Position numbers and translations under genes: made by a program. A model generated the notes under the pieces. It was not told the DNA's origin. It ran no database searches and was given only the letters and a program-made list of their open reading frames with translations. This document shows, piece by piece, positions 6,101 through 27,131 of a stretch of 64,000 nt of DNA; within the stretch, counting starts at the first letter, position 1, and each line of letters opens with the position of its first letter. This DNA comes from Candidatus Desulfofervidaceae bacterium (GTDB lineage: Bacteria; Desulfobacterota; Desulfofervidia; Desulfofervidales; Desulfofervidaceae), in the NCBI GenBank assembly GCA_027064585.1, contig JAMOPI010000020.1, positions 1-64,000 on the forward strand. The letters run 5' to 3'.

Positions 6101-6130
6101 TTTATATTCCGCAAAATTTGATGTAAAATA

Positions 6131-6280
6131 AAATTGGATTTTTCTGCCTTCCAACTCCGAATAAAAAGTCAGCGCCGAAGCGAGCGAAGTCAAGATTGGC
6201 TGCCAAATCCCGCAGGGCTTGCCCTTGACCGCATGAGTGAGAGGAAGTGCTACAATTATAATTGGACTTTGAAGGGAAAA
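6131..6280 (+). repeat. Degenerate copy of a MITE-like palindromic element (copy D)
   Basis: This stretch aligns closely with the reverse complement of 26757-26880. Shared blocks are CTTCCAAC, ATAAAAAGTCAGCGCCG, AGCGAGCG, a GC-rich hairpin ending GGCTTGCCCTTGACCGC, and CTACAATTATAATTGG followed by a TTTGAAGGG block. The terminator-like hairpins and at least one terminal inverted repeat of the full element are missing or too decayed to recognise. It lies just after cimA in the same orientation as copies A and B. It is read as a truncated member of the repeat family. Confidence 0.75.
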
Positions 6281-6420
6281 GTCTCTACAAGTTACATGGA
6301 ATTATGAGATTAACTTTAAGTTTTAAAGCTCTTTATTGGGAGAAAACGTCAAACTACAAAATATTATCGCAGAAGCCATAGAGAGGTACCTATACCCATT
6401 TTTACGAAGTATTTAAATTC

Positions 6421-6450
6421 TTGACAAAGACTTTAAAACAGGAGGATAAT
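6421..6450 (+). promoter_or_regulatory. Candidate sigma70-type promoter
   Basis: TTGACA at 6421-6426 and GATAAT at 6445-6450 are separated by 18 bp, close to the housekeeping consensus. It would drive the gene at 6591 with a leader of roughly 135 nt. The segment from 6281 to 6420 shows no gene. Confidence 0.55.
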
Positions 6451-6590
6451 ACTTAAAACTGGCGTTAATAAGCACATAGATAAATTCTGAAGTTTGGCGT
6501 TTGAGGACAGGAGGATAGTTGTAAAATTGATTGTCTTTCTGTAAACAGATATTTTATTTTGGAAAAATTTTCTATTTAGGGAGGAGGAAA

Positions 6591-7232
6591 ATGGTTGAAA
6601 GAAAAGAGGGTAAGTTAGGTGTGAAATTCAACGGTCCCAACTTTAATCTTGATTTTAATATAGAAGCTTCAGAGAGTTTTGTTAGAGACTTGGCTGAAAA
6701 GACATGGGATTTTCTAGAAAATAAGCTTATTCCTTTTTTACAAACACAATTAAAAATTGAAAAAAAAGTAAGAATATCTCAAGAGTCGGGTGGTGAAAGG
6801 AAAAAAGAGAATAAAGAGAACGAAGTAAAAGTTCCAGAAATAAAACCTAGTTTAGAATCAAAATTACCATTAGAAGAAACTAAAAAGTTTGAATCTAAAG
6901 CAGAATTTCAACCAACGCGATTTGAAGAAAAGAAGGTTACTGATCTAGAACTGCGGAAATTTTATGACAGAAAAAGACCAAAAACAAGGATTCAGAAATT
7001 GCTGGTCTTTGCCTATTATCTGAAGCATTTCAAGAATAAACCTGAGTTTACGAGCAATGATATTAAGCAGTGTTACCAGAGTATAGGTGAGAAGCTTCCT
7101 CCTAGGTTTACCCAGGATGTTTACGATGCTATTTCAAAATATGGGTATGTAGAAAGAGGAAATAAAAAGGGACTGTATCGGCTTTCGGATAAGGGAGAAC
7201 AGGCAGTGGATGTAATGGGTATGGAAGATTAG
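6591..7232 (+). CDS. Unrecognised protein with a C-terminal winged-helix-like domain
   Basis: No function is recognised. The start at 6591 is preceded by GGGAGGAGG with good spacing; an upstream in-frame ATG at 6531 has no such site. The 213-residue protein has three parts: a short N-terminal region (about 1-55) rich in hydrophobic/acidic alternation, a highly charged Lys/Glu linker (about 60-125) likely disordered, and a C-terminal domain (about 135-210) of helices ending in a turn and YVERGNKKGLYRLSDKGE, which looks like a winged helix with its wing. A DNA-binding or adaptor role is possible but is inference. It stands alone between two repeat-element copies, with its own promoter and terminator candidates. 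Confidence 0.7.
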   Translation: MVERKEGKLGVKFNGPNFNLDFNIEASESFVRDLAEKTWDFLENKLIPFLQTQLKIEKKVRISQESGGERKKENKENEVKVPEIKPSLESKLPLEETKKFESKAEFQPTRFEEKKVTDLELRKFYDRKRPKTRIQKLLVFAYYLKHFKNKPEFTSNDIKQCYQSIGEKLPPRFTQDVYDAISKYGYVERGNKKGLYRLSDKGEQAVDVMGMED

Positions 7233-7284
7233 GCTTTATTCTGGTAAATTTGGCCAACTTTACAGTTATCTGGATTTAAATTTA

Positions 7285-7314
7285 ACACCTGTGTTGTTCT
7301 CCACAGGCGTTTTT
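7285..7314 (+). terminator. Candidate intrinsic terminator
   Basis: CCTGTG and CACAGG form a stem (extended outward with one mismatch) around a loop of about 8 nt, directly followed by CGTTTTT. It lies about 55 bp after the stop of the gene at 6591. Confidence 0.6.
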
Positions 7315-7374
7315 ATTTGGGTTTCTTCTTAAAAACTGGACAAGATAAGTAAAAATAGAAAGGTGTTAAAGTGG

Positions 7375-7604
7375 TCCCAAAATCCGCGGTTGATTTATAG
7401 TATTCTGCAAAAATTGGTGAATTTTCCTTTTTCCTTCTGGCCTCAAAAAGAAATTTGCGCCGAAGCGAAGGCGCTATAATTATGATTGGGCTTGAGGAAA
7501 AGATAAATGCCTTTTACCCTTTAGATAAAAGGCGTTTTTTAAAAAAATCGCTTTATTACAGCCCACTTGTGGGCTCTATTGAAGGGCAATTATGGATTTT
7601 GGGA
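7375..7604 (+). repeat. MITE-like element, copy A
   Basis: A roughly 230-bp element with terminal inverted repeats: it opens TCCCAAAATCCG and closes CGGATTTTGGGA-like (TGGATTTTGGGA). Inside are CTATAATTATGATTGGGCTTGAGG, shared with copy B, and a terminator-like hairpin GCCTTTTA/TAAAAGGC (7509-7533) followed by six T. A second hairpin GCCCACTTGTGGGC lies at 7561-7574. It lacks the large GC-rich palindrome of copies B, C and D; only a short AGCGAAGGCGC block sits at that place. It encodes no convincing protein and lies immediately upstream of coaBC, where the hairpins would insulate transcription. Confidence 0.8.
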
Positions 7605-24405: not shown

Positions 24406-24743
24406 CTTCAAAATCCGCAACTGATTTTTTAATAAGGGCATTTTAGACAAGAAAAAATAAAACGGAGACATCATTATTCCTCCTTCTAAAAAATTATATT
24501 CCAGGACCTCGCTTATACGGTTAAGGATTTTCACTTGCTACTCGCTATAGGCCTGCCCTTTGGGCAGGCGGTGCCCTTCGGGCTTGCCCTTGACCGCCAA
24601 GCGAGTGGAGGCGCTATAATTATGATTAGGCTTGAAGAAAAAGTAAGCATGTTTTCACCTTTTAGGTGAAAGGCGTTTTTTTAAAAATCGCTTTATGATA
24701 GGCAACCTATGCGATTTTTGAAGGACAATCACGGATTTTGGGA
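24406..24743 (+). repeat. MITE-like element, copy B
   Basis: About 338 bp with inverted termini: it opens TTCAAAATCCGCAACTGATT and closes CAATCACGGATTTTGGGA. Inside are a GC-rich palindromic block (CCTGCCCTTTGGGCAGG, GCCCTTCGGGC, ending TTGCCCTTGACCGCC), then GGCGCTATAATTATGATTAGG, a hairpin TTTCACCT/AGGTGAAA followed by GGCGTTTTTTT, and a second stem AAAAATCGC/GCGATTTTT enclosing ATAGG/CCTAT. It shares this architecture with copies A and C. It holds no gene. The interval 24328-24405 shows nothing else recognisable. Confidence 0.82.
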
Positions 24744-26544: not shown

Positions 26545-26640
26545 GTTTTTAAACAAGATCTTAAAACAAAAGTTTCTCTTAACCGCTTGCGCAATACCTT
26601 CTATTATATCTTACAGTTACTAGAAAGGCAAATGAATTTG

Positions 26641-27117
26641 TTAACCCAAAATCCGTGATTGCCCTTCAAAAACCCCACAAGTTGCTTATCATAAAGCGAT
26701 TTTTTAAAAAATACCTTTCACCTAAAAGGTGAAAAACATTTATTTTCCCTCAAGCCCAATTATAATTATAGCGCCTTCGCTCGCTTATGCGGTCAAGGCC
26801 AAGCCCTACGGGTGGCCTTCGGCCAGCCTTGACCGCGCTCGCTGCGGCGCTGACTTTTTATTTGAGGTTGGAAGGAAAAAAGGAAATTTTCTTTTCCCTT
26901 TCTCCTTTCACAACTTCTTTTTTGCCCAAGGCCGAGTGTGGTCAAGGGCAAGCCCGCAGGGCGCAGCCTGCGCCAAAGGCGCAGGTCGGAACGAACGTAG
27001 TGAGTGAAGCCCCTTGACCACCTAACGAGGCCTTGGCGTATAATTTCTGTAAGGAAGGAGATAGGAAAATTCATTAATTTTTGGAATACTATAAATCAAT
27101 CACGGATTTTGGGGTTA
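26641..27117 (-). repeat. MITE-like element, copy C (longest, inverted)
   Basis: About 477 bp, bounded by TTAACCCAAAATCCGTGATTG and its near-perfect inverse CAATCACGGATTTTGGGGTTAA, so the terminal repeats span about 20 bp and include TTAA at both ends. It is inverted relative to copies A and B. It carries two GC-rich palindromes: a 10-bp GCGGTCAAGG/CCTTGACCGC stem (26789-26836) and an 11-bp GTGGTCAAGGG/CCCTTGACCAC stem (26938-27021) nested in CAAGGCC/GGCCTTG. The conserved CACCTAAAAGGTG hairpin and CCAATTATAATTATAGCGCC block lie between 26719 and 26775. Short open frames here on both strands are by-products of GC-rich repeats. Confidence 0.85.
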
Positions 27118-27131
27118 AGCAATCACCAAAC

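What the first reader, a model, noticed from the sequence alone, without database searches (positions are those of the whole stretch)
6131..7604. Interspersed MITE-like family with conserved termini and built-in terminators
Copies at 6131-6280 (partial), 7375-7604, 24406-24743 and 26641-27117 share termini CCCAAAATCCG..., a CTATAATTATgATTGGGCTTGA block, a terminator-like hairpin with T-run, and a second hairpin. All lie between genes. No transposase with matching ends is in the window, so they are non-autonomous. The central block contains a TATAAT-like box, so they may both stop and start transcription of neighbours.
Basis: seen in the sequence. Interest (0 to 1): 0.62.

Follow-up and report, generated by a model that had tools for sequence, protein, structure and literature searches.

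The report
IS1380-derived MITE family carrying hairpin cassettes
About 70 short, gene-less jumping elements sit between genes in this sulfate-reducing bacterium; they are crippled relatives of a known jumping gene (IS1380 family), they usually sit just upstream of their neighbours' own promoters rather than replacing them, and they carry a folded DNA/RNA hairpin that also turns up in filamentous phages and small plasmids.

Summary
The terminus CCCAAAATCCG occurs 89 times in the 1.92-Mb genome (control 0); the central block occurs 71 times and is absent from a same-genus relative. Three window copies are inward TIR pairs at 7376-7603, 24407-24742 and 26645-27113, the last with a GTTAA target duplication. 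The fourth (6101-6319) is not a partial copy: it is a second class with different ends. Parent found: the same termini bound decayed IS1380-family transposase fragments in this genome and an intact IS1380 transposase in a Desulfobia MAG. The elements' right ~100 bp is the parent's 5' end, which supplies the terminator. So this is a non-autonomous, IS1380-derived MITE family in Candidatus Desulfofervidaceae. The start half is not supported: hexamer spacing is 19-20, class B shows no orientation bias, and promoter-like sites are enriched outside the element, next to the genes. Class A copies concentrate between divergent genes (26/43; about 25% expected). The core holds two copies of a covarying three-way-junction hairpin, absent from Rfam, also found downstream of pIV in inovirus-like contigs, in RepL plasmids and in an IS21-like element.

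The parts
7376..7603 (+). class A element: IS1380-type TIRs, hairpin module 2 (truncated), block, terminator, right end
   Evidence: TIR pair, block and hairpin+T-run
24407..24742 (+). class A element, left TIR degraded, right TIR intact
   Evidence: alignment to other copies
26645..27113 (-). full-length class A element: TIRs, modules 1 and 2, block, terminator
   Evidence: exact TIR pair; 86% identical over 469 bp to the C37 copy
26640..26644 (.). target-site duplication GTTAA, left
27114..27118 (.). target-site duplication GTTAA, right
6101..6319 (+). class B element (own ends TTATAGT...ACTATAA, degenerate; no IS1380 ends, no terminator)
26792..26834 (-). module 2 three-way-junction hairpin GGTCAAGG...CCTTGAC
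   Evidence: (R1 E=2.3e-17)
26921..27045 (-). module 1 hairpin (diverged second copy)
6166..6262 (+). module 2 and block in the class B copy
26685..26762 (-). stretch with the terminator-like hairpin and T-run, from the parent IS 5' end
7510..7541 (+). terminator-like hairpin with T-run (approximate coordinates)
24652..24680 (+). terminator-like hairpin with T-run

Best explanation
The repeats are non-autonomous transposons (MITEs) mobilised in trans by an IS1380-family transposase that acts on the 17-bp TIR CCCAAAATCCG(C/T)GATTG and makes 5-6 bp target duplications. The right ~100 bp is the parent's 5' end and carries a terminator-like hairpin. The interior came from an older element (class B) with two hairpin modules. 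They spread in this lineage as genomic parasites and persist mainly where they do least harm: between divergent genes and just upstream of host promoters. Shown: copy number, termini, TSDs, the shared 5' end, decayed parents, position bias. Inferred: trans-mobilisation, terminator activity, neutrality.
For: 89 TIR hits, 0 control. About 40 inward TIR pairs; 6 of 42 with exact 5-6 bp TSDs, 0.3 expected. Same TIRs bound IS1380 transposase remnants at C9, C31, C28 and C10. MITE bases 375-474 match DNA beside decayed transposase in G002, G003 and G005. Intact IS1380 transposase (NF033539, 8.5e-96) with a 17/17 right end in Desulfobia sp.. Seventy-one core copies here, 0 in the same-genus genome. 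Position: 26/43 divergent, about 25% expected, p=9e-7. Promoter-like sites in element-gene gaps 14/35, 4.1 expected; element ends 1 and 3, against 3.4 and 3.9 expected.
Against: No intact IS1380 copy was found in this genome, so present mobility is unproven; the draft may lack it. Most pairs lack an exact TSD. The left end beyond the TIR does not match the parent's 3' end. The excess in divergent spacers could also reflect selection for a function.
Confidence: 0.87

Rival explanations
1. The elements are regulatory devices kept by selection: their TATAAT box starts and their hairpin stops transcription of neighbours (insulator or mobile promoter).
For: Hairpin plus T-run in 45/46 class A copies, 39% in shuffles; TTGACC and TATAAT nearly always present. 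Class A copies are upstream of the right-hand gene in 38/44.
Against: Hexamer spacing is 19-20 nt, not 16-18. Class B, which lacks the terminator, shows no orientation preference (10/20). Promoter-like sites lie outside the element. Orientation in tandem spacers, 11 vs 5, is not significant.
Confidence: 0.12
2. The element is primarily a small structured RNA gene spread by transposition; the core or the block-to-terminator stretch is transcribed as an sRNA.
For: Core folds far better than shuffles (z=-8.7); compensatory changes in module 1 and in the hairpin across hosts.
Against: No Rfam match. Hairpins can also act as DNA. Many copies lack one module or are truncated. No promoter support.
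Confidence: 0.1
3. The repeats are REP/ERIC-like palindromes or recombination debris, not transposons.
For: GC-rich palindromes, intergenic only, many partial copies.
Against: Sharp 17-bp TIRs, TSDs above chance, and a transposase family with the same ends.
Confidence: 0.03

Closest known systems
IS1380-family insertion sequences (NF033539 / PF13701)
   Same: 17-bp TIR, 5-6 bp TSD, and 5' end sequence shared with decayed members in this genome and an intact member in Desulfobia sp.
   Different: No transposase gene; interior replaced by hairpin modules
Bacterial MITEs with promoter or terminator motifs (Correia elements, MITEAba12, SPRITE; reviewed in PMC10969869)
   Same: Short, multicopy, intergenic, TIR-bounded, nested with other repeats
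   Different: IS1380 parent; the review does not mention IS1380; no support for an internal promoter here
TIMEs, mosaic Tn3-derived MITEs (PMC4133298)
   Same: Mosaic non-autonomous elements mobilised in trans
   Different: Different transposase family; here three TIR sets are layered on one core

Membership tests
MITE | Short (<600 bp), no transposase gene, multicopy | tested here: met
   137-496 bp elements, 71 cores
MITE | Terminal inverted repeats | tested here: met
   About 40 inward pairs
MITE | Target-site duplication | tested here: met
   6 of 42 exact 5-6 bp, 0.3 expected; most copies show no exact one
MITE | Mobilised in trans | not testable with these tools
   needs a transposition assay
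IS1380-derived | Ends match an IS1380-family element | tested here: met
   Same TIR around transposase remnants and an intact transposase; 100 bp of 5' end shared
IS1380-derived | Intact IS1380 transposase in the same genome (needed for present mobility, not for descent) | tested here: not met
   Only fragments; 38-contig draft
Rho-independent terminator | Stem-loop followed by T-run | tested here: met
   45/46 class A; activity not tested
sigma70 promoter | -35 and -10 hexamers spaced 16-18 | tested here: not met
   TTGACC-N19/20-TATAAT
Known Rfam RNA family | Match above gathering score | tested here: not met

The most novel reading that the evidence does not exclude
The core's hairpin belongs to an undescribed, widespread structured cassette, consensus GTCAAGGC-[variable stem]-ACCCGNAGGGCTTGGCCTTGAC, a three-way junction. 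Mobile elements repeatedly acquire it: IS1380-type MITEs in three Desulfofervidaceae genomes, an IS21-like element between istA and istB, inovirus-like genomes 21-40 bp after pIV, RepL plasmids, and plasmids near rep genes. It may act on single-stranded DNA (strand-initiation or packaging signal) or in mRNA.
Probability: 0.4. Interest if true: 0.65.

Novelty: new member of a known kind. Interest (0 to 1): 0.45.

Why it matters
It gives a high-copy MITE family in an uncultured sulfate reducer a parent transposase, and shows that a conspicuous TATAAT box and terminator in a repeat need not mean regulation of neighbours. If the shared hairpin is a real functional cassette, it links inoviruses, rolling-circle plasmids, IS21 and MITEs through one structured element and gives a concrete target for tests of single-strand replication or packaging.

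Tried and rejected
An empty-site comparison with the same-genus genome failed because the upstream gene is not syntenic there. RNAalifold on the terminator alignment gave no sensible hairpin because the alignment is poor; stems were counted per copy instead. Folding of the class B window copy is no better than shuffles (z=-0.9). A relaxed hairpin pattern in viral contigs gave 57 hits; I estimate that chance alone gives tens, and the covariance model confirmed only some of them. Phage records gave no match. Searching papers for the hairpin sequence found nothing.

Full report
Observation. CCCAAAATCCG occurs 89 times exactly in the 1.92-Mb genome and never in the reversed control. The block GCTATAATTATGATTGGGC occurs 71 times with up to 3 mismatches, control 0. 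Inward-facing TIR pairs number about 40, with sizes clustering near 137, 230-330 and 450-496 bp. Exact 5-6 bp direct repeats flank 6 of 42 pairs, against 0.3 expected from shuffled flanks; the window copy at 26645-27113 has GTTAA on both sides.

The fourth copy is different. At 6101-6319 the ends are not CCCAAAATCCG. It belongs to a second class (B) with degenerate ends TTATAGTATTCCGC...GCGGTTAACTATAA and no terminator. Of 71 copies, 46 are class A (IS1380 right end with terminator), 20 class B and 5 unassigned. Class B without IS1380 ends also exists in another genus of the family (G004:C169), so it is probably the older unit. Class A reads as class B placed next to an IS1380 left TIR, with its right end replaced by the IS1380 5' end (inference). 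Some class B copies are further enclosed by a third TIR pair, AGGCTGTTTGAAAA.

Parent. Elements with the same TIRs at C9:24269-25272, C31:20575-21380, C28:161412-161986 and C10:93440-94165 contain remnants of an IS1380-family transposase (PF13701 E=1.5e-22; NF033539 4.4e-37; N-terminal pieces). The right 100 bp of the MITE matches DNA beside decayed transposase genes in three related genomes, so the terminator-like hairpin is inherited from the parent's 5' end. A Desulfobia MAG (L170) carries an intact IS1380 transposase (8.5e-96) with a 17/17 right end and a left end with three mismatches. Contig ends of the 6.5-Mb relative G041, which I take to be Desulfatibacillum alkenivorans because one of that species' records has the TIR at the same contig position, carry the same TIR next to an IS1380 C-terminus.

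Host. TIR hits in named records include Candidatus Desulfofervidaceae MAG AUK281, which matches relative G004. Copies of the block are absent from the same-genus genome G001, which points to lineage-specific spread.

Does it regulate neighbours? A hairpin followed by a T-run is present in 45/46 class A copies, against 39% of shuffled sequences, so 'stop' is plausible. 'Start' is not supported. TTGACC and TATAAT are spaced 19-20 nt. Class B copies face the downstream gene in 10 of 20 cases. Promoter-like sites are enriched in the host DNA between class A elements and the start codon (14/35 at 9 of 12 or better, 4.1 expected) and not in the element ends. Class A copies lie between divergent genes in 26/43 cases against about 25% of spacers (p=9e-7); class B does so in 5/20. 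Genes here are mechanical ORF calls scored by codon usage, and the null comes from 464 kb of the same genome. The simplest reading is tolerance of insertion between or just upstream of native promoters; selection for a function is not excluded.

The core. It contains two related hairpin modules. Module 1 keeps pairing through two-sided changes (4 pairs, 25 cells, 0/500 shuffles on cells), although two subfamilies contribute most of them. Module 2 is about 85% identical over up to 60 nt to intergenic hairpins in plasmids. A covariance model (R1) finds it in 12 of 148 relatives, including 17 copies in G002: two lie between istA- and istB-like genes of an IS21-like element (gene names are my reading of the sequence), and several others lie in repeats flanked by IS1380-type ends. 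In viral contigs it lies 21-40 bp after a pIV/secretin-like gene, same strand, upstream of a Rep-like gene, in at least seven inovirus-like genomes (gene names again read from sequence). In plasmids it is near RepL, RepC or RepA genes in several cases. Across 28 distinct sequences 9 of 16 pairs show two-sided changes (0/500 shuffles on cells; the alignment was fitted to the structure). Rfam has no match. Caveats: the plasmid and virus collections are mobile by definition, and the first seven viral examples were found with a pattern that fixes part of the stem. Its function is not shown.

Verdict. An ordinary kind of element (MITE) with a clearly identified parent family, one misassigned copy and an over-read promoter. 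The unexpected part is the shared hairpin cassette.

Noticed in passing
window 26792-26834 and loci L392, L395, L396, L397, L398, L415, L420, L432, L403, L404: A three-way-junction hairpin shared by the MITE core, inovirus-like genomes (21-40 bp after a pIV-like gene in most) and RepL plasmids; no Rfam match.
   Followed up: partly
L465 603-649, L466 (G002): The same hairpin lies between istA- and istB-like genes of an IS21-like element present in two copies.
   Followed up: partly
L241, L242, and G000:C17, C24, C9 copies: A third TIR family AGGCTGTTTGAAAA...TTTTCAAACAGCCT encloses some class B copies; parent transposase not identified.
   Followed up: partly
window 6101-6319 and G000 class B copies: Class B ends are compatible with a TA target duplication (TA-TAGT...ACTA-TA), as in IS630/Tc1-mariner elements; not tested further.
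   Followed up: no
L016 2222-2557 (G000:C9): An IS3-family transposase C-terminal fragment is embedded in the decayed IS1380 element.
   Followed up: partly
L081-L083: The IS1380 end of the 6.5-Mb relative G041 has its own hairpin plus T-run just inside the TIR, suggesting terminators at IS1380 ends may be common.
   Followed up: no
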